A DNA stretch of 64,000 nt from Pilibacter termitis. GTDB taxonomy: Bacteria; Bacillota; Bacilli; Lactobacillales; Streptococcaceae. This document shows positions 5,476 to 52,841 of the stretch, piece by piece (the first letter of the stretch is position 1; the number at the start of each line of letters is the position of its first letter). The translations under genes and the position numbers were made by a program. Below the pieces are notes generated by a model. It saw nothing but the letters and a program-made list of their open reading frames with translations. It ran no database searches and was not told the origin of the DNA. The stretch spans positions 1 through 64,000 of the forward strand of contig NZ_FUXI01000009.1 of NCBI RefSeq assembly GCF_900167335.1, read 5' to 3'.

Positions 5476-5857
5476 GAAAAGCGAAGAAGTGCGTTCAGGA
5501 GTTTGAGGCAGCGAGCCACGCCGTTTACTTACTCCTACACTTCGTTTCGCATACAGTCTTTCTAAGAATCAAAGATTCTTGAAAGACTAGCATCGAAACG
5601 CAAGTTTCGAGCGACACTGCGAACAGCCACCAAACTCCAGCACCTCAAAGCTAGACAAAGAAAAGCGAAGAGGGGCGTTCAGGAGTTTGCGACAGCGAAC
5701 CACGTCGTTTATTCACTCGAAACGCAAGTTTCGAGCGACGTTGTGAGCAGTCGCCCAACTCCTGCCCCACGTAGCTAGACAAAGAAAAGCGAAGAAGTGC
5801 GTTTTGAAGTCTGTGGACGTTGCGAGCAGCCACCAAACTTCAGCACTTCAAAGCTAA
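5476..5857 (+). repeat. nested-hairpin repeat cluster A (3 units)
   Basis: Units are 5476-5660 (long form with an extra arm), 5661-5784 (short form) and 5785-5857 (middle deleted, leaving one long hairpin). Each starts GAAAAGC and ends near TAGCTAGACAAAG. The first unit starts one base after the ATPase stop. The last runs straight into the ribosome binding site of the next gene. Unit 2 has an inner stem ACGTCG/CGACGT and an apical stem CTCGAAAC-GCAA-GTTTCGAG. See the findings for covariation. Confidence 0.9.
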
Positions 5858-5874
5858 AAAAAGGAGGGACTAAT

Positions 5875-6837
5875 TTGCTTAGTGTAGCAGATGTAACAGG
5901 GAGTAAATCTCCTAAAAAAATCAAAACAAAAAAGAAATTTTCAAGTAAACGATTGAAAAATAGTTGGCAATTATACATTTTTCTCTTGCCTGCATTCTTA
6001 TTCTTTCTAGTGTTTTGTTATGAGCCAATGTATGGTGTGATTATCGCTTGGAAAGATTATAATCCGTCTCTTGGGATACTTGGAAGTCCTTGGGTTGGTT
6101 GGAAGCATTTCATTGACTTCTTCCACTCCTATTTCTTCTGGGATTTGATTAAGAATACTTTAGGTATTAGTGTTTATTCATTAGTTGTAGGATTTCCATT
6201 GCCGATTATTTTGGCATTGAGTTTAAACGAATTAAAGGACGGCTTTGGGAAAAAATTTGCCCAAACAATCACTTATGCACCGAACTTTATTTCAGTTGTA
6301 GTTATTGTCGGAATGATTGTCGCATTTGCGAATCCTTCGACAGGGATGATTAATCACGTCATTGAATTTTTCGGAGGAAAACCGATTAATTTCATGGAAG
6401 ACCCGAAATGGTTCAAAACGCTTTATGTATTGAGTAACGTCTGGCAATCAACAGGTTGGAGTTCAGTGATTTACATGGCAGCTCTAAGTGGTGTAGATAT
6501 GCAGTTGCACGAGGCGGCAATGATTGACGGAGCAAGTCGTTTGCAACGTGCGTGGCATATTAACATTCCAACGATTATGCCAACGATTATCATTCTATTG
6601 ATTATGAGTATGGGGAATTTATTAAACGTAGGATTTGAGAAAATCATTCTTATGCAAAACCCATTAAACCAAGAGGCAAGTGACGTAATCTCAACATTCG
6701 TGTACCGAGCAGGTCTAGTAGGAGGACAATACTCCTTTGCCAGTGCAATAGGACTATTCAACTCCGTCATCAACTCCATTATCCTAATCGTCGTAAACGG
6801 GATAACAAAAAGATATAGTGAAAATAGTTTGTGGTAA
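5875..6837 (+). CDS. lplB: ABC sugar permease, LplB type
   Basis: This 320-aa, six-TM inner-membrane permease of a CUT1 importer carries the EAA loop (EAAMIDGASRLQRAWHINIP) that contacts the ATPase. The start is TTG 5875, chosen because AAGGAGG lies 7 nt upstream. A longer frame from ATG 5797 would translate repeat DNA and is rejected. It pairs with the permease at 7379 and the lipoprotein at 8377, and resembles Bacillus LplABC and pneumococcal NgtS-P1-P2. The substrate, short N-glycan-derived oligosaccharides, is inferred from the glycosidases downstream. Confidence 0.85.
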   Translation: MLSVADVTGSKSPKKIKTKKKFSSKRLKNSWQLYIFLLPAFLFFLVFCYEPMYGVIIAWKDYNPSLGILGSPWVGWKHFIDFFHSYFFWDLIKNTLGISVYSLVVGFPLPIILALSLNELKDGFGKKFAQTITYAPNFISVVVIVGMIVAFANPSTGMINHVIEFFGGKPINFMEDPKWFKTLYVLSNVWQSTGWSSVIYMAALSGVDMQLHEAAMIDGASRLQRAWHINIPTIMPTIIILLIMSMGNLLNVGFEKIILMQNPLNQEASDVISTFVYRAGLVGGQYSFASAIGLFNSVINSIILIVVNGITKRYSENSLW

Positions 6838-6888
6838 GAACATTGAGCGAAGTCGAAATGCAAAGCATTTCAGCGTAGCGAAATGTTC
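6838..6888 (+). repeat. family-2 structured element a
   Basis: The element starts at the base after the lplB stop codon. The outer stem is GAACATT/AATGTTC and the inner hairpin is GAAATGC-aaa-GCATTTC, with purine-rich linkers between them. The final GAAATGTTCTTG text recurs at about 7007-7018. Confidence 0.75.
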
Positions 6889-6897
6889 TTGTACAGA

Positions 6898-6964
6898 GAG
6901 AAATGAGTCTGCGGAGCAGACCAAAGCGATAGCTTTGCTTTGAACGAAGTTCAAAGTATTTCTC
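6898..6964 (+). repeat. family-2 cloverleaf element b
   Basis: The outer stem GAGAAAT/ATTTCTC encloses three perfect hairpins placed side by side: GTCTGC-gga-GCAGAC, CAAAGC-gata-GCTTTG and CTTTGAAC-gaa-GTTCAAAG. In 67 bases almost every base is paired, giving a four-way junction. Confidence 0.85.
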
Positions 6965-7025
6965 GATAAACAATACGGAAATTTTCATTGAAAACAAAAA
7001 ACGTGCGAAATGTTCTTGAGTAGAA

Positions 7026-7094
7026 GGGCATTAAGTTTGCGACAGCAAACCGAAACGCAAGTTTCGTTTGGTGCGAACGCACCAAATAATGCCC
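7026..7094 (+). repeat. family-2 cloverleaf element c
   Basis: The outer stem GGGCATTA/TAATGCCC encloses GTTTGC-gaca-GCAAAC, CGAAAC-gcaa-GTTTCG and TTTGGTGC-gaac-GCACCAAA. Only one base is unpaired between the arms. The second arm equals the apical hairpin of family-1 repeats. The first arm resembles the stem text of unit A2. The two families are therefore probably related. Confidence 0.85.
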
Positions 7095-7149
7095 GATGAG
7101 CAAGGCTAAAAATTACGGAAAAACTTGAAAATGCAGTTTGCAATTCAGA

Positions 7150-7371
7150 GATTTACTTCACGAAGTGATTTCACAGAAAAGACTTCGAGCGGGCTTTAGC
7201 TCGCTCATGACCCCGCTTGGCAGGAGCGATAGCGGAAGTCAAGTTTTAAGAAATCACAAAGTGATTTCGCAGAAAAGACTTTGAGCGGACGAAGTTCGCG
7301 AATGACCCTGCTTGGCAGGAGCGAAGCGGAAGTCAAGTTTCAAGAAATCCCGAAGGGATTTCGCAGAAAGG
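7150..7371 (+). repeat. family-2 tandem structured repeat d
   Basis: Two direct copies of a roughly 95-base unit are present (CAGAAAAGACTT...GGAAGTCAAGTTT). They alternate with short hairpins: CTTCAC-gaa-GTGA, GAAATCAC-aaa-GTGATTTC and GAAATCCC-gaa-GGGATTTC. The latter two differ in sequence but keep pairing. Each unit closes with GACTT.../AAGTC and contains the conserved text GCTTGGCAGGAGCGA. The array ends just before the AAAGGAG site of lplC. Confidence 0.75.
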
Positions 7372-7378
7372 AGAAAAA

Positions 7379-8287
7379 ATGAACACAAAAGCAATAAAAA
7401 TGTCAACAGGAGATAGAGTATTTGTTGGCTTTAACTATTTATTTGTTATCGCTGCAACATTAGTTGTACTTTATCCTTTGATTTATATTATTAGTGCCTC
7501 AGTAAGTGACCCTAGTACAGTGCAATCAGGAGAAATGTGGTTGTTACCAAAAGGTTTCACTTGGGAGGGGTATGAGAGAATTTTAGCCAATCAAGATATT
7601 TGGATGGGGTATAAAAATACGATTATTTATACCGTATTAGCAGTAATCATTAACTTAGCTGTTACCATTCCATGTGCTTATGCACTTTCCAGACCAGAAC
7701 TTTACGGGAAAAACTTTTTCGTCAAATTTATGATGATTACCATGTTTATCTCTGGAGGAATGATTCCAACGTATCTTTTGATTAAACAACTCGGAATGTT
7801 GAACAGCATTTGGGCGTTATTGATTCCAAGTGCAACAGGTGTCTACAATATCGTGGTAACACGTTCATTTTTCCAGACAACCATTCCACGAGAATTAGAG
7901 GAGGCGGCGATTGTTGACGGTTGTAGCGATTTTCGGATTTTCTTCCAAATCGTCTTGCCACTTTCCGCACCTATTCTTGCAGTTATCGCACTTTTCGTTG
8001 GTGTCGGACGTTGGAACGGGTTTATGGATGCGTTGATTTATTTGTCAGACAGAGCGAAATTCCCTTTGCAAATGATTTTGCGTGAGCTGTTGATTTTGCA
8101 AGATATGAGTTCTAATGCGACAGCATCCAATGCAAGTATTCAAGAAGTGCTAAACAGAAAACGTGAATTGGTCGGGATTATCAAATATGGAATTATGATT
8201 GTTTCCACCTTACCAATTATCGTAGTCTATCCATTCTTACAACGTTACTTTGTAAAAGGAATGTTAGTTGGTTCCTTGAAAGGATAA
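7379..8287 (+). CDS. lplC: ABC sugar permease, LplC/YtcP type
   Basis: This 302-aa, six-TM permease is the second membrane subunit of the importer. It has the EAA motif ELEEAAIVDGCSDFRIFFQI at about 175-195 and a C-terminus (YFVKGMLVGSLKG) typical of CUT1 permeases. The start ATG has AAAGGAG 5 nt upstream. It is separated from lplB by 540 bases of structured repeats. That is unusual for two subunits needed in equal amounts. Confidence 0.88.
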   Translation: MNTKAIKMSTGDRVFVGFNYLFVIAATLVVLYPLIYIISASVSDPSTVQSGEMWLLPKGFTWEGYERILANQDIWMGYKNTIIYTVLAVIINLAVTIPCAYALSRPELYGKNFFVKFMMITMFISGGMIPTYLLIKQLGMLNSIWALLIPSATGVYNIVVTRSFFQTTIPRELEEAAIVDGCSDFRIFFQIVLPLSAPILAVIALFVGVGRWNGFMDALIYLSDRAKFPLQMILRELLILQDMSSNATASNASIQEVLNRKRELVGIIKYGIMIVSTLPIIVVYPFLQRYFVKGMLVGSLKG

Positions 8288-10318: not shown

Positions 10319-11659
10319 ATGAGTGATGAACATTTACATAATGTGATGGAGCAAACAATACGTCAAGATTATGTGACAGAGGAAGTAAAAAAATTCATGG
10401 AGGAAATCTCAACGATTGCTCAAAAGGAAAATCCAATGTGGGCAGAGATTTTCAATAATTGTTTCACGAATACGCTAGAAACTGTCTTGAAACCTCAAGA
10501 GGACGGCACGGTTTATGTACTGACAGGTGACATTCCAGCGATGTGGTTGCGAGATAGTGTTGCACAAGTGCGACCGTATTTGCCATTAGCGAATCGTGAT
10601 GAAAAAATCAAGCAAATGCTTGTAGGCGTGGTAAAACGTCAATTTGATTTTATCAATATTGACCCTTACGCCAATGCGTTCAATGAGACAGCGAACAATG
10701 CAGGACATATCCATGATATTACGGAGCGAAATGCGTGGATTTGGGAGAGAAAATATGAAATTGACTCTCTTTGCTATCCCATTCAACTTGCCTACTTGCT
10801 TTATTTGAATACAGGTGAAACAAGCCAATTTGACGAGAAATTTGTTAGTGGGATTGAGAAAGTGTTGTCTTTGTGGAAAGTAGAACAAGATCACGAAAAT
10901 TCTCCATATCAATTTTGGCGGAAAGATGCTTGGCGACCAGAAGACGGGTTGTCTCATGAGGGACGTGGACGTAAGACTGGAAAAACAGGCATGACATGGA
11001 GCGGGTTTAGACCGAGTGATGACTCATGCACGTATCATTATTTGGTGCCAAGTAATATGTTTGCAGTGGTGGTTTTAGAGTATATCCAAGATATTTTCTC
11101 TACGATATTGGACAATGAAAACATTGTAAAAACCGCAAAAACACTCCAGACGGAAATTCAAGAAGGCATTGAAAAATATGCAGTAGTGCAAAATAAATTT
11201 GGAAAAGAGATTTATGCGTATGAAGTAGACGGTTTGGGCAATTATGAAATCATGGATGACGCAAATATTCCAAGCCTTTTATCGAGTGCTTATCTTGGGT
11301 ATCATGAGATTGATGACATACGTTATCAATCGACTCGAGCGAGCATTTTATCGAAAGAAAACCGCTATTATTATACAGGCGACATTGCAAGCGGAATCGG
11401 TAGTTTCCATACACCAGAAAACTATATTTGGCATATGGCAATTGCAATGGAAGGGTTGACGACAAATGACAAAGCAGTCAAAAAAGAAAAGCTCAACCTC
11501 ATGGCGAATACAACAGCAGGAAAAAACTTAATGCACGAAGGATTTCACAAAGACGATGACAAATTTTACACTCGTGAATGGTTTAGTTGGCCGAATATGA
11601 TGTTTTGCGAGTTGTTAATGGATTATTTTGATATAAAAATTCAAACGAAAAAAGGATAA
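10319..11659 (+). CDS. GH125 exo-alpha-1,6-mannosidase
   Basis: This 446-aa protein has no signal peptide. GDIPAMWLRDSVAQVRPY, the Asn/Glu-rich AFNETANNAGH and HTPENYIWHMAIAMEG are hallmarks of family GH125 (formerly DUF1237). These metal-independent inverting enzymes remove alpha-1,6-mannose from N-glycan cores. It is the first of three consecutive mannosidase genes. The pneumococcal counterpart sits in the same kind of cluster. The start has an AAGGAG site. Confidence 0.92.
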   Translation: MSDEHLHNVMEQTIRQDYVTEEVKKFMEEISTIAQKENPMWAEIFNNCFTNTLETVLKPQEDGTVYVLTGDIPAMWLRDSVAQVRPYLPLANRDEKIKQMLVGVVKRQFDFINIDPYANAFNETANNAGHIHDITERNAWIWERKYEIDSLCYPIQLAYLLYLNTGETSQFDEKFVSGIEKVLSLWKVEQDHENSPYQFWRKDAWRPEDGLSHEGRGRKTGKTGMTWSGFRPSDDSCTYHYLVPSNMFAVVVLEYIQDIFSTILDNENIVKTAKTLQTEIQEGIEKYAVVQNKFGKEIYAYEVDGLGNYEIMDDANIPSLLSSAYLGYHEIDDIRYQSTRASILSKENRYYYTGDIASGIGSFHTPENYIWHMAIAMEGLTTNDKAVKKEKLNLMANTTAGKNLMHEGFHKDDDKFYTREWFSWPNMMFCELLMDYFDIKIQTKKG

Positions 11660-11670
11660 GGAAAGCAATA

Positions 11671-14346
11671 ATGAAGAAAAAAGTTTATATTATTTCGCAT
11701 AGTCATCTTGATAGAGAGTGGTATATGCCTTATGAGCAACATCATATGCGTGTTGTGGAGTTGTTTGATGAATTGATTCATTCATTTGAAACCGACCCGA
11801 GTTTTAAATATTTTCATTTGGACGGTCAAACCATTCCGCTAGATGATTATTTTGAAGTGAAACCTGAAAACCGTGGGAAAATTGAGCGTTTCATTCAAGA
11901 GGGGAGACTGAAAATAGGACCGTTTTATATTTTACAAGATGATTTTTTGATTTCATCAGAGTCCAATGTCCGTAATGCAATTATTGGCATGAAAGAAAGT
12001 AAAAAATACGGCAATCCTGTGAAATTGGGGTATTTCCCAGATACATTTGGCAATATGGGGCAAACACCGCAGATGATGCGAAAAATGGGTCTTGATGCTG
12101 CTGCATTTGGTCGTGGGGTAAAACCGACTGGATTGAACAATATGGTGGCGGATAGTTATTCTTCGCAGTATTCTGAGATGAATTGGAAAGGTCCTGACGA
12201 TAGTGAGATTTTCGGTTTGCTCTTTGCCAATTGGTATTCTAACGGGAACGAAATTCCAACAACGGAAAAAGAGGCAAGAGAATTTTGGGATCAAAAACTT
12301 GCAGACGCTGAGAAGTTTGCCTCTACCCGTCATTTGTTAATGATGAATGGTTGCGACCACCAACCGTTGCAAAAAGATGTTGGAAGTGCGATTGCTCTTG
12401 CCAATACGCTTTATCCAGAATATGAATTTGTTCATTCTCATTTTGAGGAATATTTGGAGGCTGTGAAAAGTGAGTTGCCTGAAAATCTGGCAACCGTGAC
12501 AGGAGAATTGACCAGTCAGGAAACGGAAGGCTGGTACACTTTAGCCAATACAGCAAGTAGTCGTGTGTATTTGAAACAGGAAAATGTGAAAACGCAAAGT
12601 TTCCTTGAAAATCAAGCGGAAGTAATTGCAACATTTGCAAGCGTAGCAGGCAGACAATATCCAGCAGAAGTATTAGAATATGCGTGGAAATATTTACTTC
12701 AAAATCACCCGCACGACAGCATTTGTGGCTGTTCCGTTGATGAAGTACATCGTGAGATGAGCATACGTTTTGCCAAATCAAGCGAGGTCGCCAAATATGT
12801 AATAGACGAGTCAATGACGGCACTTAGTGAAAAAATCGACACCTCTTGCTTTGAAAAAGGAGCAATTCCGTTTATTGTAGCCAATACATCAAATACTGCG
12901 AAAACAGGCGAAGTCGAAGTAACGCTTGAGATTGATAGAGTATTATTTAAAGAGGCATTTCCACGTGTCGCCTATGAAACGCTTGAAAACAAAGCAACAG
13001 GGCAATTTGTCGTGGTGGATAGCGAAAACAACATTCTTCCGAGTGAAGTTTGTGAGGTAAAAGTCGAATTTGGCTATGATTTGCCAAAAGACGCTTTCCG
13101 TGTTCCTTACATGAAAAAAGTGGCGAAAGTGAAAATTTATGTCAAAGAATTGCCAATGATGAGCGTTCACACGTTTGCGTTAAAAGAAGTGGAAAATTTG
13201 CCAGCAATCGACAAACAGTCAATGATTTTACCGAATAAACAAGGAATTGAAACCCCTCATTTGAAAGTTGAGATTGCACCTGACGGAAGTTTGAGTGTGG
13301 AAAATAAAAAAACAGGCAAAGTTTTGAGCAACTTATTGGTATTTGAAGATGTCGGCGACATTGGAAACGAATATATTTTCAAGCAATCAGAAGATTTCAC
13401 GGCTCTTTTATCCACAGATTTCCCACATGAAATCAGCGTAGAAAGAGATACAAATGAAGTGGCACAATTAAAATTAACACATAAAATGAATGTGCCAATT
13501 TCTGCTGAAGAATTGTTGCAAACAGAACGGGAAAAAGTGATAGATATTACCAATCGCAAGTCCAAACGTTCAGAAGTAATCAATGCGTTTACGCTTGAAA
13601 CGTTGATAACCGTCTACAAAGATAGCACACAAGTGCATTTTGAAACAAAGTTCAACAATCAGCACAAAGACCATAGACTTCGTGTGCTATTCCCGAGCGG
13701 AGTAGAAAGCACAACGCATTTTGCAGAAAGTATTTACGAAACCGTTGAGCGAGACAATCACGTAAGTAGCTACTGGAAAAATCCAAGCAATCCACAACAT
13801 CAGCATGGATTTGTCAATCTCCATGATGAGAAAAATGGTTTGACCATAGGAAATGTCGGGTTGAATGAATATGAGGTATTGCCTGATGAAAATGTTATTG
13901 CACTGACACTTCTTCGTTCGGTTGGTGAAATGGGTGACTGGGGCTATTTCCCGACACCAGAGGCACAATGTTTGGGCGAGATGACGGTGGAATATTCTTT
14001 AGAAATGCACGACAATGAGACCTATTATGAGAGTCTCTCACGTGCAGTTGCCCTAAAAACTCCAATGAATGTTAAGCAAACAACCATTCATCAAGGAAGT
14101 TTAGCAACGAACACTTCTTTTGTCACACAAAGCAACCCGCAATTTTTGATTACGTGTGTGAAAGAATCTCTTGATACAAAAGGGATTGTAGTGAGAGGAT
14201 ACAATTTGAGCAACAAGCGAGCAACTCATCTTGAGTTAAATGTGTTAGGCAAAACGGCTCAAGTGGTGAATTTGCTTGAGGAAACTATGGAAAATTGGAC
14301 AGGTATTTTGCAACCAGCAGAAATTTTGACAACGAAATGGAGTTAA
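11671..14346 (+). CDS. GH38 alpha-mannosidase
   Basis: This 891-aa cytoplasmic enzyme carries the GH38 zinc and catalytic motifs: HSHLDREW near the N-terminus (zinc ligands), GYFPDTFGNMGQ at about 113-124 with the nucleophile Asp, and NHPHDSICGC at about 348-357 (zinc His). The rest is the beta-rich C-terminal domain of the family. GH38 bacterial enzymes cleave alpha-1,3-mannose and related linkages. It lies 11 bases after GH125 and 3 bases before GH92, so the three are one operon for high-mannose or paucimannose glycans. Confidence 0.93.
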   Translation: MKKKVYIISHSHLDREWYMPYEQHHMRVVELFDELIHSFETDPSFKYFHLDGQTIPLDDYFEVKPENRGKIERFIQEGRLKIGPFYILQDDFLISSESNVRNAIIGMKESKKYGNPVKLGYFPDTFGNMGQTPQMMRKMGLDAAAFGRGVKPTGLNNMVADSYSSQYSEMNWKGPDDSEIFGLLFANWYSNGNEIPTTEKEAREFWDQKLADAEKFASTRHLLMMNGCDHQPLQKDVGSAIALANTLYPEYEFVHSHFEEYLEAVKSELPENLATVTGELTSQETEGWYTLANTASSRVYLKQENVKTQSFLENQAEVIATFASVAGRQYPAEVLEYAWKYLLQNHPHDSICGCSVDEVHREMSIRFAKSSEVAKYVIDESMTALSEKIDTSCFEKGAIPFIVANTSNTAKTGEVEVTLEIDRVLFKEAFPRVAYETLENKATGQFVVVDSENNILPSEVCEVKVEFGYDLPKDAFRVPYMKKVAKVKIYVKELPMMSVHTFALKEVENLPAIDKQSMILPNKQGIETPHLKVEIAPDGSLSVENKKTGKVLSNLLVFEDVGDIGNEYIFKQSEDFTALLSTDFPHEISVERDTNEVAQLKLTHKMNVPISAEELLQTEREKVIDITNRKSKRSEVINAFTLETLITVYKDSTQVHFETKFNNQHKDHRLRVLFPSGVESTTHFAESIYETVERDNHVSSYWKNPSNPQHQHGFVNLHDEKNGLTIGNVGLNEYEVLPDENVIALTLLRSVGEMGDWGYFPTPEAQCLGEMTVEYSLEMHDNETYYESLSRAVALKTPMNVKQTTIHQGSLATNTSFVTQSNPQFLITCVKESLDTKGIVVRGYNLSNKRATHLELNVLGKTAQVVNLLEETMENWTGILQPAEILTTKWS

Positions 14347-14349
14347 GAG

Positions 14350-16428
14350 ATGAGTGTTTCGATTGATACACGACATGGTTCGAGCAATACGGCGAGCCTT
14401 TCCAATGGAAATTGCCTACCTTTGACAAGCACACCGCACGCAATGAACTACTTTGCCCCGCAAACTTCTTCTTCACGTGGGGCGTGGTGGTTTCATCCTG
14501 AGGATGTCTCATTTGAGGGATTTCGGCTGACACATCAGCCGAGTCCTTGGGTGGGGGATTTTGGGTATTTGTTGTTGCAACCATTTTCTGGAAAAGTGAG
14601 CAATCCGTCTGTTTTCGGGGCGAGTAGTAGCTACGAGAGGACGAACTCTGTATTTTCTCCGCATGAATTGAGCGTTTTTCTCAATCGTTACGAGATTTCC
14701 GCTAGTCTTACACCGAGCAGATATGGTGCGAAATTGCGAATAAACTACGAGAGAAATGGTGCGGGAATGTTTCTTCATTTGACGGAAAATCATGCGTGGC
14801 GTGCAATAGATAATCACACGATTACAGGCTGGGTGAGTAATTTTGCAGAGTGTGAGGATAAAGAATTTAAAATGTATTTTGCTCTTTTCTTTCATGAAGC
14901 AATCCAAGAAACAACGAGTCATGCGTTATTTTTTGGCGACATAAAAACTCAAGAAGTAACGCTTGCGACCTCGTTTATTTCTGAAAAGCAAGTGCATTTA
15001 AATCTTCAGCGTGAGCTAGAAAAAAGCTATGAGGAAGTCAAAGAAAATGCGAAAGTGGAATGGGAAAATGTTTTCTCAAAAATCAAGATTACACACCATA
15101 ATCAAGAGGAAAAAAGTACATTTTATCATTGTCTTTACCGAGCGTTTTTATTTCCGACGAGATTTTATGAGCTAGATGAAAATTTTTCTGCTATTCATTA
15201 TCAAACGCATACAAAGGAAGTAAAAAAGGGTGTTTATTATACGAATAATGGCTTTTGGGATACGGCGAAAACTGTTTATCCATTGTATACGCTCATTGCT
15301 CAAGACACGCTTTCTGAAATGCTCGAAGGATTTTTGAATGTATATCGAGAGGTTGGCTATTTGCCGAAATGGCTTTCGCCAGATGAGCGAGGCATGATGC
15401 CGGGAATGGCGATTGATTCGGTGATTGCAGATTGTTTGACGAAAGGCATACGAATGGATTTAGCAGAAGAATTTTTGCAAGCAATGATTCATAGTGCGAA
15501 TGTAAAAAGTGGCGATGAACGTTTTGGTAGAGCGAATATCGAGGCATATAATCGTCTAGGATTTGTACCGAACTCGCAAACGGAGAGTGTTAATCAAACG
15601 CAGGATAACGCATATAGTGATTATTGTATCGCTCAAGTTGCCGAACTTCTTGGGAAAACGGAGATAGAGAGAAAATATCGCAAACTTTCCATTGGTTATC
15701 GCCAGTTGATTGATGAAAAAACGCATTTGTTGCGTGCGAAAGATGAAAACGGAAACTTTGTCCTCCCTTTTTCCACTTATGAATGGGGTGGGGCGTACAC
15801 CGAGGGGAGTGCGTGGCAAAATAGTTTTCTTGCGTTTCATGATATTGCAGGCTATATTGAGAGCATTGGTGGTGAGGAGAATTTTTCTAAATTGCTAAGC
15901 GATTTATGCAATCAATCCTCTTTTTTTGAAGTAGGGCATTATGGCTTTGAAATTCATGAGATGACTGAAATGGCAAGGCTCAATTTTGGGCAATTGGCTT
16001 TGAGCAATCAGCCAAGTTTTCATGTGCCGTATTTGTTTCATTATTGTCATCAGCCAGAAAAGACACAGATATTGGTCAGACAACTTTTGAAAAATGCTTT
16101 TTCAAGCGGAGAAGAGGCTTTTCCGGGCGATGAAGATAACGGGAGTATGTCGTGTTGGTATATTTTTTCATCGTTAGGTTTTTTCCCTGTTTGTTGTGGA
16201 AACAAAGAATATCAGCTAGGAATCCCATTATTTGATAAGGCAGAAGTTACTTTGTCAAATAATGAAACATTGCGTATCCAAACAACACCAAACGAAGTAC
16301 AACATCAGTTTGTTATAGGAAAAAGAAAAAATGGAAAGGAATACAAAGCAAACACTTTACAACACGACGAAGTGATGAAAGGCGGAACACTAGAGATTCA
16401 ACTAGGGATTCTACCAAATGAAAAATAG
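14350..16428 (+). CDS. GH92 alpha-1,2-mannosidase
   Basis: This 692-aa protein without a signal peptide has GH92 signature regions. These include YTNNGFWDTAKTVYPLYTL at about 297-315, the WLSPDERGMMPG region and GDEDNGSMSCWYIFSSLGFF near 598-617. GH92 enzymes are calcium-dependent inverting exo-mannosidases, mostly alpha-1,2. The stop TAG is followed immediately by a repeat cluster. The family's usual exported forms are longer, and the cytoplasmic location here fits import before hydrolysis. Confidence 0.92.
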   Translation: MSVSIDTRHGSSNTASLSNGNCLPLTSTPHAMNYFAPQTSSSRGAWWFHPEDVSFEGFRLTHQPSPWVGDFGYLLLQPFSGKVSNPSVFGASSSYERTNSVFSPHELSVFLNRYEISASLTPSRYGAKLRINYERNGAGMFLHLTENHAWRAIDNHTITGWVSNFAECEDKEFKMYFALFFHEAIQETTSHALFFGDIKTQEVTLATSFISEKQVHLNLQRELEKSYEEVKENAKVEWENVFSKIKITHHNQEEKSTFYHCLYRAFLFPTRFYELDENFSAIHYQTHTKEVKKGVYYTNNGFWDTAKTVYPLYTLIAQDTLSEMLEGFLNVYREVGYLPKWLSPDERGMMPGMAIDSVIADCLTKGIRMDLAEEFLQAMIHSANVKSGDERFGRANIEAYNRLGFVPNSQTESVNQTQDNAYSDYCIAQVAELLGKTEIERKYRKLSIGYRQLIDEKTHLLRAKDENGNFVLPFSTYEWGGAYTEGSAWQNSFLAFHDIAGYIESIGGEENFSKLLSDLCNQSSFFEVGHYGFEIHEMTEMARLNFGQLALSNQPSFHVPYLFHYCHQPEKTQILVRQLLKNAFSSGEEAFPGDEDNGSMSCWYIFSSLGFFPVCCGNKEYQLGIPLFDKAEVTLSNNETLRIQTTPNEVQHQFVIGKRKNGKEYKANTLQHDEVMKGGTLEIQLGILPNEK

Positions 16429-16922
16429 AAAAGCGTAGAAGTGCGGTAAGGAGTTTGCAACAGTGAGCCGTGCCGTTTATTTACTCGAAACGTAAGTTTC
16501 GAGCGGCACTGCGAACAGTTGCCAAACTCCTGCACTTCGTAGCTAGACAAAGAAAAGCGTAGAAGTGCGGTAAGGGGGTTGCAACAGTGAGCCACGTCGT
16601 TTATTTAATCGAAACGCAAGTTTCGATCGACGTTGCGAACAGTTGCCAAACTCCTGCACTTCGTAGCTAGACAAAGAAAAGCGTAGAAGTGCGGTAAGGG
16701 GGTTGCAACAGTGAGCCACGTCGTTTATTTAATCGAAACGCAAGTTTCGATCGACGTTGCGAACAGTTGCCAAACTCCTGCACTTCGTAGCTAGACAAAG
16801 AAAAGCGTAGAAGTGCGGTAAGGGGGTTGCAACAGTGAGCCACGTCGTTTATTTAATCGAAACGCAAGTTTCGATCGACGTTGCGAACAGTTGCCAAACT
16901 CCTGCACTTCGCAGCTAGACAA
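16429..16922 (+). repeat. nested-hairpin repeat cluster C (4 tandem units, period 124)
   Basis: Units start at 16429, 16553, 16677 and 16801. The last three are nearly identical and so were recently multiplied. Unit 1 differs in its inner stem (GTGCCG/CGGCAC against ACGTCG/CGACGT) and apical stem (CTCGAAAC against ATCGAAAC), and each keeps its pairing partner. The array begins directly at the GH92 stop and ends about 20 bases before the start of the kinase. Confidence 0.95.
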
Positions 16923-16941
16923 AAAATCGAGAGGTGAGAAA

Positions 16942-17817
16942 ATGCTTGTAGGTAGTATCGAAGCAGGAGGGACAAAATTTGTTTGTGCCGTAGGAAATGA
17001 AAATTTGGAAATTCTTGAACAAGCTCAATTTCCAACGACTACGCCAGAGGAGACACTCGCAAAAGTGATAGAGTTTTTCCAGAAACACAAAGTGGAGGCG
17101 ATTGGTATTGGCTCTTTTGGCCCGATTGAAATTCGGGAAAATCATGAAAAGTATGGTTATATTACGACGACACCAAAAAAATATTGGGGTGATACGGATA
17201 TATTAGGGAGTATTCAACAAGCACTGAACATTCCTTGTAGTTTTACGACAGATGTCAACTCAAGTGCCTATGGCGAGCTTGTTTTATCAGAAAAAAAGGT
17301 AAAAAGTCTCGTTTATTATACGATTGGCACAGGAATTGGTGGCGGTGCGATTCAAAATGGGGTGTTTATTGGAGGGAAATCTCATGCAGAAATGGGGCAT
17401 ATTTTCGTCAAACGTCATGCGAATGATTTGTCATTTTCTGGTGTGTGTCCGTTTCACAAAGATTGCCTTGAAGGTGTGGCGAGCGGCCCGACTATACAGG
17501 CGAGAAGTGGGATTCGTGGCGAAATTTTGGCAAAGGAAAATCCAACACATGAAGTATGGGATATTTTAAGCTACTATATCGCTCAAGCGGCAGTCAACGC
17601 AACGCTCAATTTAGCACCAGAGAAAATTATTTTCGGTGGTGGTGTTGTTTCACAAACTTTGCTAGAAAAGATAAAAGAACAATTTGTGGCACTTTTGAAC
17701 AACTATGTAGAAATAGATAACATTGAGGAATATCTTGTGTTACCAAGCATTGAAAATAACGGCAGTGCAACGATTGGCAACTTTGCATTAGCGATTGAAA
17801 AGAAACACAAACAATAA
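16942..17817 (+). CDS. ROK fructokinase/mannokinase (GmuE/ScrK-like)
   Basis: This 291-aa sugar kinase has the ATP-binding start GSIEAGGTKFVCAVG, the catalytic region IGTGIGGGAI and the zinc-type cluster GHIFV...CPFHKDCLEGVASGP. That cluster is typical of GmuE (YdhR)/ScrK enzymes, which phosphorylate fructose or mannose. Here mannose from the three mannosidases is the likely substrate. The start at 16942 has a GAGAGGTGAG site; the frame upstream of it lies in repeat DNA. Confidence 0.88.
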   Translation: MLVGSIEAGGTKFVCAVGNENLEILEQAQFPTTTPEETLAKVIEFFQKHKVEAIGIGSFGPIEIRENHEKYGYITTTPKKYWGDTDILGSIQQALNIPCSFTTDVNSSAYGELVLSEKKVKSLVYYTIGTGIGGGAIQNGVFIGGKSHAEMGHIFVKRHANDLSFSGVCPFHKDCLEGVASGPTIQARSGIRGEILAKENPTHEVWDILSYYIAQAAVNATLNLAPEKIIFGGGVVSQTLLEKIKEQFVALLNNYVEIDNIEEYLVLPSIENNGSATIGNFALAIEKKHKQ

Positions 17818-17891
17818 AGAAACACATATAGAAAAGTGCAAGAGAGCATTTTACAATAAAGGCTACAAGGAAAAGAAGGAGAGTATGCTAG

Positions 17892-19208
17892 ATGAGTGAA
17901 ATAAGAGAAGATATTGTCGAAAGTATAGATGCCGAAAATGAGGAGTATGGCGAGCTGGCGGACAATATAAAAGAAAAGCTCGAATGGTTTCAAGACCAAA
18001 AAATAGGGGTTATTTTCCATTGGGGTTTGTACGCAGAAGCTGGAATTGTAGAAAGCTGGCAATTATCCGAGGAGGACGATTGGGCAAGAAAGAAACCTTG
18101 GCGAGAAGATTTACAGCAATTACGCAATGATTATTGGGGGTTAAATAAAGTATTCAACCCAGTCAAATTTGACCCAGATGATTGGGCGGAAAAATGCAAA
18201 CAGGCAGGTTTTCGCTATGTAATTTTCTCAACGAAACATCATGACGGATTCAATATGTACGACACAAAGGAAAGCGACTATAAAATCACAAATGAGCCGT
18301 CGCCTTTCTGTCACAATCCTAAGGCAGATACATTTGGCGAAGTCATGAAGGCATTTCGTAAAGCCGGTTTAGGAACAGGAGCGTATTATTCTAAAGCAGA
18401 TTGGCATTGTCCTTATTATTGGGTGCCAAACGAACACGCCAAAGGTCGTCAAGCAAGCTATTCACCGAAAAAAAATCCAGAAATGTGGGCGAAATTTGAG
18501 CGATTTGTAAAAAATCAATTGCTTGAAATTTGTCGTGACTATGGCAATATTGACATTCTCTGGCTAGATGCTGGCTGGGTGAATATGCGTGAAGAAATGC
18601 TTGATATGCCTGATATTGTAGGCGAATTGCGTAAAACTCAACCAGATATGCTTGTCGTTGACCGCACGATTGGTGGTGAATTTGAAAACTATGTGACACC
18701 TGAGCGAAAAGTGCCAGATGTTGCACCGAAAAAGGTTTGGGAGAGTAATTTACCACTTGCGAAAAACTGGGGGTACGTGCCAAATGATATTTACAAACCA
18801 TTTGATGAATTGCTTGCGAGTATTTTGAAAATCATTAGCATGGGAGGCAATGTCATTTTAGGGGTAGGACCAAAGCCAGACGGGACACTTCCAGATGAGG
18901 CAGTTGCCATTATGGAAAAACTAGGAGAATTTCTCTCTACATTTGGTGAGGGAATTTATAACACCCGAGCGGCGAAGATTACGCAAGAAGAAGATTGGTA
19001 TTTTACAGAAAATGAAGAAGCAATCTTTGCTTTTGCACTTGCCAAAAAAGAAAGTGCAACACTATCATTAGAAAAACTGCAAAAACACTACGAAATAGGA
19101 GAAATCCTCAATCTTCGTACCAAGGAAAACGTAAAAATAGAAAACAATCAAGTCGTTGTAAATTTTGACGAAAAATTAGCAGTTGGCTTGAAAATAAATA
19201 AAAAATAA
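17892..19208 (+). CDS. GH29 alpha-L-fucosidase (first)
   Basis: This 438-aa cytoplasmic enzyme has the GH29 motifs GVIFHWGLY, STKHHDGFNMYDTKESDYK and the nucleophile Asp in DILWLDAGW. It would remove core or antenna fucose from imported glycans. It starts after AAGGAG with 10-nt spacing. It is only about 30% similar by eye to the second GH29 at 20238, so the two probably differ in linkage specificity. Confidence 0.92.
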   Translation: MSEIREDIVESIDAENEEYGELADNIKEKLEWFQDQKIGVIFHWGLYAEAGIVESWQLSEEDDWARKKPWREDLQQLRNDYWGLNKVFNPVKFDPDDWAEKCKQAGFRYVIFSTKHHDGFNMYDTKESDYKITNEPSPFCHNPKADTFGEVMKAFRKAGLGTGAYYSKADWHCPYYWVPNEHAKGRQASYSPKKNPEMWAKFERFVKNQLLEICRDYGNIDILWLDAGWVNMREEMLDMPDIVGELRKTQPDMLVVDRTIGGEFENYVTPERKVPDVAPKKVWESNLPLAKNWGYVPNDIYKPFDELLASILKIISMGGNVILGVGPKPDGTLPDEAVAIMEKLGEFLSTFGEGIYNTRAAKITQEEDWYFTENEEAIFAFALAKKESATLSLEKLQKHYEIGEILNLRTKENVKIENNQVVVNFDEKLAVGLKINKK

Positions 19209-19223
19209 CGAGGACAACAAAAA

Positions 19224-20234
19224 ATGAGCAAAAAAGAACTAGGAGTATTATTAGACTCTGGCAGAAAACATTGGAAAAAGGAAGAAATTCTTGCATTATT
19301 GGATTTAATTAAGGAAAAAGGGTTCAATACATTTCAATGGCATTTCTCTGATTTTTTAGGATTTCGAGTGAAATTGGATAGTTTCCCAGAAATTGCCTCA
19401 GACGACCATTTGTCAAAAGAAGAAATGAGAGAAATCATCACCTATGCTGAAAAATTAGGGATTGACATTGTGCCAGAATTTGACACACCGGGGCATTTAA
19501 CACCCATGTTAGCGAAATATCCAACATGGGGTGTGAAACAAATAGATGAAAATGGTGAAGTAAAGCATAGCGACACGGCTCTTGACATTACCAATCCAGA
19601 GGCTAAACAAGCGGTGTTTACAATTTTGGAGGAAATTTTGACATTGTTCCCAAACAGTACGCATTTTCACCTTGGGGCAGATGAATTTATTTGGTTTAGC
19701 AAAGTCCAAGAATTTCCAGATTTGATCAGCAGCTCTCAAGCGTTAGTAGGAGAAGTGGCAAGTGGTTTGGAGAGTTATGTTGCTTATACGAATGAACTGA
19801 TTGACTTTATGAATGAACGAGGGAAAACACCACGTGTATGGAATGACGGATTTTTCAGAAGTGATGTCGTAAGCAAAGTAGAGCTTTCTAAAAATGTTGA
19901 AATTTGCTATTGGACAAAGTGGGATGAGGCAATGGCGACACTGGATACATGGCTAGAAAAAGGCTATAAAATGCTTAATTACAATGACAATTATCTCTAT
20001 TATGTTCTAGGTGAACACTCAAGCTACACGTATCCGACAGCAGAAAAAGTGCGTGAGGGCTGGGAGGAGTACAAGTTTTCCGGAGAGCAAATGGTGCCAG
20101 ACGCACACAAACACCAACTTGTCGGCACCTATTTAGCCATTTGGTCAGATAAACCAGAGGCAAAAACACCGCAAGAAATTTTAGCAGATATATCGCCTGT
20201 TATGGAAGTGATGCGTGAGAAAGTAGAGGGGTAG
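19224..20234 (+). CDS. GH20 beta-N-acetylhexosaminidase
   Basis: This 336-aa protein is essentially a bare GH20 TIM barrel. It has FNTFQWHFSDFLGFR, EFDTPGHLTPML and the catalytic Asp-Glu pair in THFHLGADEF. It lacks a signal peptide and accessory domains, like the small cytoplasmic GH20 enzymes of streptococcal N-glycan loci. It removes terminal GlcNAc or GalNAc. It is 15 bases after one fucosidase and 3 bases before the other, so they form one operon. Confidence 0.9.
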   Translation: MSKKELGVLLDSGRKHWKKEEILALLDLIKEKGFNTFQWHFSDFLGFRVKLDSFPEIASDDHLSKEEMREIITYAEKLGIDIVPEFDTPGHLTPMLAKYPTWGVKQIDENGEVKHSDTALDITNPEAKQAVFTILEEILTLFPNSTHFHLGADEFIWFSKVQEFPDLISSSQALVGEVASGLESYVAYTNELIDFMNERGKTPRVWNDGFFRSDVVSKVELSKNVEICYWTKWDEAMATLDTWLEKGYKMLNYNDNYLYYVLGEHSSYTYPTAEKVREGWEEYKFSGEQMVPDAHKHQLVGTYLAIWSDKPEAKTPQEILADISPVMEVMREKVEG

Positions 20235-20237
20235 AAA

Positions 20238-21482
20238 ATGAACAAAGATTACATTCGTGTAAGAAATTTTGAAAAATTAGGTTTGGGTTTGTTTGTACAT
20301 TGGGGATTGTATTCCATTCTTTCACAAGGGGAATGGACAGAGCGTATTCATAAAATCCCAAAAGAAGAATACGAAAAATTAATTGAGCAATTCTCAGCAG
20401 AAGATTTTTCGGCAAAAGAATTGGTTCGCCTTGCCAAAAAAATGGGGGCAAAATACATTACGCTTACCACCAAGCACCACGAGGGTTTTTATCTCTACGA
20501 CACAAAAGGGTTTAGCGACTTTGACGTCATGCACAGCCCTGCTAAACGTGATTTGGTCAAAGAGTTTGTTGACGCTTGTCGTGAGGAAGACATTTTGCCG
20601 TTTTTCTACATGGCAACATTTGACTGGCACAGTGAATTATTTGAAGAAGATTTCAATGGCTTTTTAGACTATCTAAAAGATTCAGTTGAAATTTTGTGCA
20701 AAAATTATGGCGACATTGGCGGATTTTGGTTTGACGGGAACTGGAGTCGTTTGGATAGCGATTGGAAACTAGACGAGTTGTACAGCATGATTCGTTCATA
20801 CCAGCCAAACGCAATGATTATCAACAACACAGGATTGGATGACCGTGGAACGATTGTTCATCAAGAAGTTGATGCGGTAACTTTTGAAAAAGGAACACCA
20901 GAGACCGTCAAGCAAGTCAATAAAGATGAAAAATATATCGCAGGAGAAATTTGCACAACGCTCAATTATCACTGGGGTGTGGCACATCAAGATTTAGATT
21001 ACAAATCATTGCCAGAAATCCTCGAGTTAATGTGTTTTGCTAGACGAGTGGGAACGAATTTCTTGCTGAATATTTCTCCACTTGCAAGTGGTGCAATTCC
21101 CGTCATTTGTCAAGAATATATGAAAATGATTGGTCAATGGCTAGAAGTGTTTGGGGAAAGTTTTTACGAAACGGAAACAAGTGAGATTTACACAAAGTCA
21201 AACGAAAAAGATTTTGCCTTGGAAACAAGTGACAGCGTATATTTCTTCATGCACGATTTGCGTGTGATAGGAGATGAAAATGTTGTATTGCGAGGAGATG
21301 CCGTCAATCCACGCAGTTTCCTCCAAGTAAAACAGGAACTGAAAAATCTTCGTTGGCTAGATAATGAAGAAAAATTAACTTTCTCACAAGATGTCGCTAA
21401 AGGTTTGCTCACAATGGACGCAACAGGCTACCGCTACGGAGTAAACTGGGTCGTACGTGTAGCAAAAGCGGATAAAGTATAA
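20238..21482 (+). CDS. GH29 alpha-L-fucosidase (second)
   Basis: This 414-aa enzyme has GLGLFVHWGLYSIL, TTKHHEGFYLYDTKGF and the nucleophile Asp in GGFWFDGNW. There is no signal peptide. It overlaps functionally with the fucosidase at 17892, but the sequence differs enough to suggest another fucose linkage (for example alpha-1,3/1,4 against alpha-1,6), which cannot be decided here. Repeat cluster D begins four bases after its stop. Confidence 0.9.
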   Translation: MNKDYIRVRNFEKLGLGLFVHWGLYSILSQGEWTERIHKIPKEEYEKLIEQFSAEDFSAKELVRLAKKMGAKYITLTTKHHEGFYLYDTKGFSDFDVMHSPAKRDLVKEFVDACREEDILPFFYMATFDWHSELFEEDFNGFLDYLKDSVEILCKNYGDIGGFWFDGNWSRLDSDWKLDELYSMIRSYQPNAMIINNTGLDDRGTIVHQEVDAVTFEKGTPETVKQVNKDEKYIAGEICTTLNYHWGVAHQDLDYKSLPEILELMCFARRVGTNFLLNISPLASGAIPVICQEYMKMIGQWLEVFGESFYETETSEIYTKSNEKDFALETSDSVYFFMHDLRVIGDENVVLRGDAVNPRSFLQVKQELKNLRWLDNEEKLTFSQDVAKGLLTMDATGYRYGVNWVVRVAKADKV

Positions 21483-21486
21483 CAAA

Positions 21487-22101
21487 GAAAAGCTGAGAGG
21501 GGCGGTTTGAAGTCTGTGGCAGTGAGCCGTGCCGTTTACTTGCTGCTACACTTCGTTTCGCATACAGTCTTTCTAAGAATCAAAGATTCTTGAAAGACTA
21601 GCATCGAAACACAAGTTTCGAGCGGCACTGCGAACAGCCACCAGACTTCAGCCCCTTGTAGCTAGACAAAGAAAAGCTGAGAGGGGCGTTTAGGAGGTTG
21701 ACGTAGTGAGCCATGCCATTTACTTGCCTGAAGCAGATCTTCAGGTGGCATTGCGAACAACGTCCCACCTCCTGCCCCTTGTAGCTAGACAAAGAAAAGC
21801 AGAGAGGGGCGTTTTGAAGTCTGCAACAGTGAGCCACAGCATTTACTTGCTGGAAACGAAAGTTTCCAGTGCTGTTGCGATCAGTTGCCAGACTTCAGCC
21901 CCTTGTAGCTAGACAAAGAAAAGCAGAGAGGGGCGTTTTGAAGTCTGTGGCAGTGAGCCGTGCCGTTTACTTGCTGCTACACTTCGTTTCGCATACAGTC
22001 TTTCTAAGAATCAAAGATTCTTGAAAGACTAGCATCGAAACGAAAGTTTCGAGCGGCACTGCGAACAGGCACCAGACTTCAGCCCCTCATAGCTAGACAA
22101 A
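21487..22101 (+). repeat. nested-hairpin repeat cluster D (4 units)
   Basis: Units are 21487-21670 (long form), 21671-21793, 21794-21917 and 21918-22101 (long form). Inner stems are GTGCCG/CGGCAC, ATGCCA/TGGCAT, ACAGCA/TGCTGT and GTGCCG/CGGCAC. Apical stems in the short units are CCTGAAG/CTTCAGG and CTGGAAAC/GTTTCCAG. The last unit's TAGCTAGACAAA flows directly into the AGGAGG of the ABC gene at 22111. Confidence 0.95.
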
Positions 22102-22110
22102 GGAGGCAAT

Positions 22111-28805: not shown

Positions 28806-28845
28806 AAAAACGCATGAACCCTATTTTTGAGTTCATGCGTTTTTA
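28806..28845 (+). terminator. terminator of the glycan locus
   Basis: A perfect 14-bp stem, AAAAACGCATGAAC/GTTCATGCGTTTTT, is followed by A/T. It starts six bases after the last kinase gene. The symmetric A and T runs allow use from both strands, so the minus-strand TetR transcript may also end here. Confidence 0.9.
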
Positions 28846-28846
28846 T

Positions 28847-29385
28847 GAGTGCTGAAATCTGGTGGCTGTTCGCAACAGCACTGGAAACTGCGTTTCCAGC
28901 AAGTAAATGTTGTGGTTCACTGTTGCAGACTTCAAACCGCCCCTCTTTGCTTTTCTTTGTCTAGCTGCGAAGTGCTGAGGTCTGGTGGCTGTTCGCAGTG
29001 CCGCTCGAAACTTTAGTTTCGATGCTAGTCTTTCAAGAATCTTTGATTCTTAGAAAGACTGTATGCGAAACGAAGTGTAGTAGCAAGTAAACGGCACGGC
29101 TCACTGTTGCAGACTTCAAACCGCCCCACTTCGCTTTTCTTTGTCTAGCTGCGAGTGGCAGGAGTTTGGTCGCTGTTCGCAATGCCACCTGAAGCCCTGC
29201 TTCAGGCAAGTAAATGGCATGGCTCACTGCGACAAACTCCAAACCGCCCCTCTTTGCTTTTCTTTGTCTAGCTACGAGGGGCTGAAGTCTGGCAACTGTT
29301 CGCAACAGCACTGGAAACTGCGTTTCCAGCAAGTAAATGCTGTGGCTCACTGTTGCAGACTTCAAACCGCCCCTCTTCGCTTTTC
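28847..29385 (-). repeat. nested-hairpin repeat cluster E (4 units, minus orientation)
   Basis: Read on the minus strand the units are 29385-29263, 29262-29140, 29139-28956 (long form) and 28955-28847 (partly degraded). The first starts at the base after the TetR stop codon, so orientation follows the TetR gene, not the glycan operon. Stem variants include TCGC/GCGA with CCTGAAG/CTTCAGG (second unit) and CAAC/GTTG with CTGGAAAC/GTTTCCAG (first). Confidence 0.93.
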
Positions 29386-29955: not shown

Positions 29956-30331
29956 ATTTTCCCCTCCATTACCCGAAAATTTTGTTATTCTCTGATTTAT
30001 GATTTGCCTATGTAGACGTTTCATTTTCATTTATTCATATTCTATCATGTTTTTTTATGCTTGTCATTTGTTTCTTAGATACATTTGTATTAAATCTACG
30101 AAAAACATTATAAAAATATACCTACCTTTTAATAAAATTTTAAGAGCAAATATTTAATCTAAATAAGTGAGTATGTTAAAATAATATGTGAGAAATGGAT
30201 TTAAATTCAATTTTTACAGCGGTTTCAACTCGTTTTTTCTAGGGAAATAGAGAAAGGTTTTTTTCTTTAAAAACATCATTTATTGAAAGGTGTTTAGAAA
30301 TGCCTGTAAGTTTGAAGTAGAGGTGAATGGA
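29956..30331. promoter_or_regulatory. divergent intergenic region between tetR and the adhesin gene
   Basis: AT-rich, no ORF. For the plus strand, TTAATC (30154-30159) and TAAAAT (30177-30182) are 17 bp apart, which is a weak promoter candidate. I saw no convincing TetR-type palindrome. The adhesin start is preceded by TAGAGGTG. Confidence 0.35.
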
Positions 30332-48877: not shown

Positions 48878-49001
48878 CTTTGTCTATCTACGAGGGGCTG
48901 AAGTTTGGCAACTGTTCGCAATGTCGATCGCAACTAACGTTGCGATTAAATAAACGACATAGCTCACTGTTGCAAACTTCAAACCGCCCCTCTCGCTTTT
49001 C
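48878..49001 (-). repeat. nested-hairpin repeat G (single unit, minus orientation)
   Basis: Read on the minus strand it starts GAAAAGCG at 49001 and ends TAGATAGACAAAG. Its apical stem ATCGCAAC-gtta-GTTGCGAT and inner stem ATGTCG/CGACAT are unique in the window, yet fully paired. It is the only unit that runs against both flanking genes. Confidence 0.93.
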
Positions 49002-52812: not shown

Positions 52813-52841
52813 TTGATTTTCTGTCTGTTTTATTTTAAAAT
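52813..52841 (+). promoter_or_regulatory. promoter of type I toxin copy 2
   Basis: TTGATT-N17-TAAAAT. About 110 bases of leader follow, identical to copy 1. Confidence 0.7.

What the first reader, a model, noticed from the sequence alone, without database searches (positions are those of the whole stretch)
6838..7371. 540 bases of compact cloverleaf elements between two importer permease genes
The gap between lplB and lplC is nearly all stems. Elements b (6898-6964) and c (7026-7094) are each an outer stem enclosing three abutting perfect hairpins, with one or two unpaired bases at the junction. Loops are short and mostly of G...A type (gga, gata, gaa, gaca, gcaa). The gap starts right at the lplB stop and ends at the lplC ribosome binding site. 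Subunits needed 1:1 are thus separated by a barrier that could alter expression ratio. Four-way junctions of this tightness are rare in leaders.
Basis: seen in the sequence. Interest (0 to 1): 0.75.

Follow-up and report, generated by a model that had tools for sequence, protein, structure and literature searches.

The report
Folded repeats spliced between operon genes
The long gap between two sugar-transporter genes is filled with copies of short, strongly folded repeat elements that occur at many places in this genome, usually right after a gene's stop codon, and whose folded shape has been kept while the letters changed; they probably act as structured spacers in the messenger RNA.

Summary
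The 541-nt lplB-lplC gap folds far better than shuffles (z -8.2), and b and c are true four-way junctions. They are not a lone leader. b, with the hairpin a before it, is one copy of a repeat; c is a second tandem copy that lost most of its hairpin; the 3' 215 nt are 95-nt units of another repeat family; the gap before lplB holds a third (124-nt) family. The three families have about 16, 40 and more than 120 copies in this draft genome. Stems are kept through compensatory changes (21 of 50 and 25 of 40 pairs). No Rfam family matches. In relatives with close LplB the gap is 11-33 nt, so the block was inserted. Repeats start right after stop codons and run sense to both neighbouring genes (28:2 and 17:0). 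Covariance models find the cloverleaf family in three other genera and the 124-nt family in two more.

Best reading: a new set of non-autonomous structured interspersed repeats, resembling EFAR or BOX, inserted between stop codon and ribosome-binding site and co-transcribed as a structured intercistronic spacer. An effect on the LplB:LplC ratio is plausible but untested. How they move is unknown: no Y1 transposase or reverse transcriptase was found.

The parts
5876..6837 (+). lplB (permease gene) upstream of the gap; stop TAA at 6835-6837
   Evidence: TTG start read from ribosome-binding site GGAGGGACTAATTTG; conserved C-terminus in relatives
6838..6888 (+). element a, copy 1: hairpin with conserved internal loops (GCGAAGTC ... 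AGCGTAGCGA), starting at the lplB stop codon
   Evidence: z -5.7; copies
6889..6973 (+). element b: four-way junction (outer stem plus three hairpins; core 6898-6964) with extra basal stem TTGT/ACAA
   Evidence: z -5.2; covariation
6974..7002 (+). unstructured linker
7003..7018 (+). remnant of element a of the second tandem copy (GCGAAATGTTCTTG repeats 6878-6891)
   Evidence: (family D11)
7018..7104 (+). element c: second, diverged copy of the four-way junction (core 7026-7094); every stem differs from b by paired changes
   Evidence: z -7.2; R1 hit 6984-7103
7105..7151 (+). linker
7152..7365 (+). 95-nt repeat family: units at about 7155-7249 and 7250-7343, plus a half unit (hairpin 7344-7362)
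   Evidence: (D3, D5, D8), about 40 significant copies in the genome, sense orientation 17:0
7366..7378 (+). lplC ribosome-binding site GAAAGGAGAAAAA, predicted accessible
7379..8287 (+). lplC (permease gene) downstream of the gap
5477..5858 (+). array of the third (124-nt) family filling the gap between the ABC ATPase gene and lplB: units 5477-5655, 5661-5779, 5785-5858
   Evidence: (R2), genome copies
16429..16919 (+). 124-nt family array (4 units), same genome feature elsewhere in the window
21488..22097 (+). 124-nt family array (4 units)
28833..29384 (-). 124-nt family array (4 units), sense to the TetR-type gene 29386-30030 (-) and starting at its stop codon
41457..41696 (+). 124-nt family array (2 units) directly after the stop of the 3721-aa gene
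48883..49000 (-). single 124-nt unit, antisense to both neighbours (an exception)

Best explanation
The gap is a mosaic of dispersed, non-autonomous, strongly structured repeats that entered between the lplB stop codon and the lplC ribosome-binding site and were then duplicated in tandem: one hairpin-plus-four-way-junction repeat (a+b), a second diverged copy of it (c), and 2.3 units of a 95-nt repeat. Shown here: the recurrence, the insertion relative to relatives, the compensatory changes, and the start at the stop codon in sense orientation. Inferred: the repeats are co-transcribed as an intercistronic segment; base pairing is maintained because the single strand that folds (most simply the mRNA) must stay compact; and in the mRNA the hairpins act, as REP does in malE-malF, as a barrier to exonucleases and a spacer between cistrons, without terminating transcription and leaving the lplC ribosome-binding site free. 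A change in the LplB:LplC ratio would then be a side effect of the insertion rather than its purpose.
For: Recurrence: R1 (a + cloverleaf) finds about 16 convincing copies in the genome, the 95-nt unit about 40, the 124-nt unit 138 BLAST hits, 124 distinct full-length units and at least 93 R2 hits, the scoring limit. Covariation: a+b family 97.1% of cells paired, 21 of 50 pairs with double changes (shuffles 8.5), 0/500, and slid controls at most 4 pairs; 124-nt family 97.3% paired, 25 of 40 pairs, 135 double-changed cells against 39. Insertion: gap 11-15 nt in eight readable relatives and 15 and 33 nt in two genomes of the same family; rpsL-rpsG is 439 nt with two tandem copies here but 33 nt in the same-genus genome; rpsG-fusA in one other genus shows an element-free (G006, 134 nt) and a filled (G015, 312 nt) site. 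Position and strand: arrays begin right after stop codons; both flanking genes sense 28 vs antisense 2 (124-nt) and 17 vs 0 (95-nt). Sense RNA folds better in 28/29, 99/124 and 19/21 copies; G-U pairs exceed A-C 16:2, 65:29, 44:6. No promoter-like site and no + strand terminator-like site in the gap; presence inside the str operon argues against strong termination.
Against: No expression data. Outside this genome the sense bias is weak (about 13 sense to 7 antisense; all three hits in G010 and half of those with two clear co-directional neighbours in G018/G019 are antisense), although mostly the same strand still folds better, so the mRNA cannot be the only reason for the structure. The 28/29 figure and the G-U excess are partly favoured by models built on that strand. 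No transposase, target duplication or terminal inverted repeat was identified, so mobility is inferred from empty and filled sites only.
Confidence: 0.68

Rival explanations
1. The repeats are selfish elements whose folded single strand is a DNA intermediate read by a transposase of the HUH kind or another enzyme (as for IS200/IS605, REP or attC sites); their presence in mRNA is tolerated and has no selected role.
For: The same strand folds better even where the element lies antisense to its neighbours in other genera. Loops are enriched for GNA/GNNA (24 of 66 distinct hairpin loops), a type known to be unusually stable in DNA (own knowledge). Sequence-conserved internal loops and a TTTATTNACT bulge across genera look like protein recognition sites.
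Against: No Y1_Tnp in this genome or in G006 and G015, which also carry the elements. No reverse transcriptase in this genome. No GTAG-type flanking tag was established. The strong sense bias in this genome is not explained by it alone.
Confidence: 0.3
2. A dedicated cis-regulatory RNA of the lpl operon (riboswitch, leader or attenuator) that sets permease stoichiometry.
For: Very strong fold exactly between two subunits needed together.
Against: Same elements occur in unrelated operons such as rpsL-rpsG and before a parA-like gene; absent from the lpl gap of relatives; no Rfam match even at lax thresholds; no terminator-like site on the + strand.
Confidence: 0.04
3. Rho-independent terminators or a transcription barrier that ends the transcript after lplB.
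For: Strong GC-rich hairpins directly after a stop codon.
Against: No U-tract after any + strand hairpin in the gap; copies sit inside operons that must be read through, e.g. between rpsL and rpsG.
Confidence: 0.06
4. A chance or assembly artefact: AT-rich spacer that happens to fold, or misassembled repeats.
For: Draft genome in 59 contigs; repeats can collapse in assembly.
Against: 0 of 100 shuffles fold as well; double changes in 21 of 50 pairs; homologous structures in other genera.
Confidence: 0.02

Closest known systems
EFAR / Efa-1 elements of Enterococcus faecalis
   Same: Intergenic, about 163 bp, tens of copies, folding as a pair of adjacent stem-loop structures (Efa-1: 163 nt, 65 copies, double hairpin; PMC2267715); EFAR is classed among MITE-like repeats (PMC3733652). 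That Efa-1 and EFAR are the same family, the mosaic assembly from many sequence types and the empty sites among strains are from memory, not verified here.
   Different: Here the second structure is a four-way junction; families run in tandem arrays with fixed periods (95, 124, 174, 196 nt); strict sense orientation after stop codons in this genome. No sequence relation could be tested, as no EFAR sequence was at hand.
BOX elements of Streptococcus pneumoniae and S. suis
   Same: Modular, tandemly expandable, structured, intergenic, up to 637 bp, transcribed in several cases (PMC3049150).
   Different: BOX, RUP and SPRITE follow the coding bias only (about 61% on the leading strand) and are over-represented between convergent genes; here most arrays lie between co-directional genes and are sense 28:2. 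BOX has terminal inverted repeats and target duplications; none was seen here.
REP / BIME elements of enterobacteria
   Same: Dispersed hairpin repeats in tandem mosaics in operons; the structure between malE and malF shields the upstream message of an ABC transporter operon (PMC5927463).
   Different: REPs are 20-40 bp single hairpins with a GTAG or CGTC tag and often a RAYT transposase (PMC3733652); here units are 95-196 nt multi-helix structures and no Y1 transposase is in the genome.
bcr1 (Bacillus cereus group) and other structured MITEs
   Same: Repeats of about 150 bp with a predicted RNA fold and inferred mobility (listed in PMC2267715).
   Different: No terminal inverted repeats or target duplications identified here.

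Membership tests
EFAR / Efa-1 | Sequence homology to E. faecalis EFAR | not testable with these tools
   No EFAR sequence was available; the paper describing it is not held. R1 found nothing in 395 sampled genomes of the order (strict filters) other than this one, but which species were sampled is not stated.
EFAR / Efa-1 | About 165-bp unit made of two adjacent independent stem-loop structures | tested here: met
   Hairpin a (51 nt) plus cloverleaf b (85 nt), tandem period 174 or 196 nt; compared with the Efa-1 description in PMC2267715.
EFAR / Efa-1 | Insertion into a pre-existing stem-loop target, parts of which remain (from memory) | tested here: inconclusive
   G006 against G015 at rpsG-fusA: element lies between stop codon and an intact terminator-like hairpin; no remnant stem seen.
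BOX (pneumococcus) | boxA-boxB(n)-boxC modular order with terminal inverted repeats and target duplications | tested here: not met
   Modules and periods differ; no terminal inverted repeat or duplication seen at lplB-lplC against relatives. box sequences themselves were not compared.
BOX (pneumococcus) | Structured, tandemly expandable intergenic repeat | tested here: met
REP/BIME with RAYT | RAYT/Y1 transposase in the same genome | tested here: not met
   PF01797 absent from the window's genome.
REP/BIME with RAYT | 20-40 bp palindrome with unpaired GTAG or CGTC at one end | tested here: not met
   Units are 95-196 nt multi-helix structures; GTAG occurs only inside the internal loop of element a and varies to GGAG or GAAG in other genera.
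Known Rfam RNA family | Match to a covariance model | tested here: not met
   No match in the gap at gathering scores; at lax E-values only sub-threshold microRNA- or lncRNA-type matches near the gap (e.g. mir-233, 32.1 of 67 bits, in the upstream array).
Group II intron or retroelement derivative | Reverse transcriptase in the genome | tested here: not met
   PF00078 absent from this genome.

The most novel reading that the evidence does not exclude
The repeats are a clade-wide class of structured elements built from shared recognition motifs (GCGAA/GUAGC internal loops, tandem GA, a UUUAUUNACU bulge) that a host protein or RNase binds, so that dozens of operons in this bacterium carry the same removable RNA modules that set the relative amounts of neighbouring cistrons, spread by an unknown strand-specific insertion route.
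Probability: 0.18. Interest if true: 0.78.

Novelty: new variant of a known kind. Interest (0 to 1): 0.52.

Why it matters
Small structured repeats are common, but these have unusually clear structure conservation (double changes in about half of all pairs), a four-way-junction shape not described for such repeats in the papers read here, near-exclusive sense orientation directly after stop codons, and relatives in several genera. That makes two open questions testable in one organism: how repeats without a visible transposase spread with strand preference, and whether inserted RNA modules re-tune operon stoichiometry genome-wide. They also warn annotators: the arrays are easily mistaken for riboswitches, leaders or short genes.

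Tried and rejected
Riboswitch or leader: rejected by recurrence in unrelated operons, by short gaps in relatives and by lack of Rfam matches. tRNA-like cloverleaf: ARAGORN finds none. Terminator: no + strand terminator-like site in the gap. RAYT/IS200-type mobilisation: no Y1_Tnp in the genome. Retro-type mobilisation: no RVT_1 in the genome. Plasmid or phage origin: no match to phages; plasmids give only a degenerate 54-nt end of the 95-nt unit in Lactococcus; no match to the element-a motif in viral contigs. A literature search for EFAR gave only indirect mentions. Array-level test of local duplication: 95-nt units resemble their array neighbours (0.93 against 0.81), but 124-nt units barely do (nearest unit in the same array for 38 of 102), so whole arrays or modules must also be exchanged between loci.

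Full report
What was checked. The gap runs from the lplB stop to the lplC ribosome-binding site. As + strand RNA it folds at -184.6 kcal/mol, z -8.2, with none of 100 shuffles as good. Hairpin a (6838-6888), cloverleaf b (6889-6973) and cloverleaf c (7018-7104) each beat all 200 of their shuffles (z -5.7, -5.2, -7.2). The stated cores 6898-6964 and 7026-7094 are exact. The 3' part, 7152-7365, is different: about 2.3 units of a 95-nt tandem repeat, more weakly folded (z -3.5 and -2.9).

It recurs. A search of the window's own draft genome (2.79 Mb, 59 contigs) with a+b gave 15 matches, some in tandem: three copies at 174-nt period on contig 47 and two at 196-nt period between rpsL and rpsG on contig 41. 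Element c proved to be a second copy of a+b whose hairpin a is cut to its 3' end: GCGAAATGTTCTTG occurs at 6878 and 7005, and c aligns with b over the whole junction. The 95-nt unit has about 40 significant places in the genome. The gap in front of lplB is filled by a third family with a 124-nt period, with 138 BLAST places, 124 distinct full-length units among the sequence I held and at least 93 covariance-model hits, the limit scored. Further places of this family lie in the window at 16.4, 21.5, 28.8, 41.5, 48.9 and 62.4 kb.

Pairing is maintained. On nine copies of a+b, 97.1% of cells form standard pairs, 21 of 50 pairs show changes on both sides (8.5 expected from shuffles, 0 of 500 reach it) and versions slid by one to three columns give at most 4. 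The 124-nt family, once phased correctly, is one long interrupted hairpin, AAAAGC-GAA-GAGGGGC ... GCCCCTC-GTA-GC, with an 8-nt bulge TTTATTTA; 25 of 40 pairs show double changes and 135 cells are double-changed (39 expected). Alternative stems, for example GGAGTTTG/CAAACTCC against AAGTCTG/CAGACTT, or CCCCTC/GAGGGG against CACTTC/GAAGTG, change on both arms together. Elements of both families share internal-loop words (GC-GAA ... GTA-GC; GA opposite GA).

Which strand. In the 124-nt and 95-nt families, found by sequence alone, the sense strand folds better in 99 of 124 and 19 of 21 units; in the cloverleaf family in 28 of 29, though there the model favours that strand. G-U pairs outnumber A-C pairs 65:29, 44:6 and 16:2, which points to a single strand rather than a cruciform; the structures counted were drawn on that strand, so this is supporting evidence only.

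Where they sit. In this genome arrays start directly after a stop codon and often end at the next gene's ribosome-binding site. With both neighbours called, 28 arrays of the 124-nt family are sense to both genes and 2 antisense to both; 6 lie between divergent and 2 between convergent genes; for the 95-nt family it is 17 to 0. Cloverleaf copies of this genome with two clear co-directional neighbours are all sense. These counts come from the best-scoring loci, not a complete census, and some loci carry two families.

Insertion. In eight relatives whose lplC start can be read, the lplB-lplC gap is 11-15 nt, and two further Streptococcaceae contigs show the lplC start equally close; in two genomes of the same family with close LplB it is 15 and 33 nt. 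At rpsL-rpsG this genome has 439 nt with two tandem copies and the other genome of its genus 33 nt. At rpsG-fusA in genus g6, G006 has a plain 134-nt spacer, while G015 has the same spacer with an element added right after the stop codon. So elements come and go at these sites. No terminal inverted repeat or target duplication was found.

Spread. The cloverleaf model hits G006, G015, G022 (g6), G007 (g7) and G010 (g10) at E down to 4e-17 and none of the other 34 relatives searched; a scan of 395 genomes of the order with stricter filters found only this one. The 124-nt model hits G018 (g2) and G019 (g3). In those copies stems differ but signature letters persist: element a keeps GCGRARTCGRAA ... 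TTTCAGYGKAG-like strands (both halves in 12 of 17), and the 124-type keeps TTTATTNACT or a one-letter variant in 7 of 7. Orientation outside this genome is mixed, including three of three antisense in G010, so a role in the neighbours' mRNA cannot be the whole reason for the fold.

How it most likely works. Shown: dispersed repeats, inserted after stop codons, folded and under pairing constraint. Inferred: co-transcription, because no promoter-like site and no + strand terminator-like site lie in the gap, the lplC ribosome-binding site stays open and copies sit inside the str operon. In the mRNA such stems would be expected to slow exonucleases and separate the decay of the two cistrons, as the malE-malF structure does in the E. 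coli maltose transporter operon (PMC5927463). Since LplB and LplC are needed in equal amounts, I expect the insertion to be tolerated rather than selected here. The alternative, that the fold serves a single-stranded DNA step of transposition, is a serious rival: GNA/GNNA loops are frequent (24 of 66) and the folding strand is mostly kept where elements are antisense. But no Y1 transposase or reverse transcriptase is present in this genome.

Known relatives. No Rfam family fits. The closest described class is EFAR/Efa-1 of E. faecalis (163 nt, double hairpin, intergenic; PMC2267715, PMC3733652). BOX elements are similar in being modular and expandable, but follow only the coding bias of the genome and prefer convergent gaps (PMC3049150). 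Sequence membership in EFAR could not be tested. I therefore file this as a new variant of structured interspersed repeats, ordinary in kind but unusual in its four-way junctions, its orientation bias and the clarity of its covariation.

Noticed in passing
window 48883-49000 (-): A single well-preserved 124-nt unit antisense to both neighbouring genes, an exception to the otherwise near-exclusive sense orientation.
   Followed up: partly
window 5477-5655, 21488-21666, 21919-22097, 28960-29138: Some 124-nt units carry an extra arm of about 60 nt (containing AAGAATCAAAGATTCTT) next to the conserved TTTATTTA bulge, making them 179 nt long; they often stand at or near an end of an array.
   Followed up: partly
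window 52826-53027 (+): Only Rfam hit of the window: rli28 sRNA (Listeria) at 53.8 bits; identical hairpins at 52646/53034 and 52733/53120 suggest a tandem duplication of the sRNA.
   Followed up: no
window 10319-22111: Glycan-use cluster around the lpl transporter: mannosidase-like genes, a GH92-like gene, two alpha-fucosidase-like genes, a ROK kinase and a beta-hexosaminidase-like gene (names judged from sequence only).
   Followed up: no
window 30290-41455 (+): A 3721-aa repetitive surface protein gene with many MucBP-like repeats, followed directly by a two-unit 124-nt array.
   Followed up: no
L189:1501-1553 (Lactococcus lactis plasmid p275A, NZ_CP016699.1): A degenerate copy of the end of the 95-nt unit sits directly before an aldose epimerase start codon; eleven Lactococcus plasmids carry it, hinting at transfer of a gene together with its upstream repeat remnant.
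   Followed up: partly
L182 (G010, rpsG-fusA gap): A cloverleaf-like element with a hairpin resembling the reverse complement of element a follows the rpsG stop, so related elements occur in both module orders or orientations in that genus.
   Followed up: partly
L171 (G011, after an lplB-like gene): A 153-nt structured gap with other short palindromes follows an lplB-like gene in a different genus; it may be yet another repeat family.
   Followed up: no
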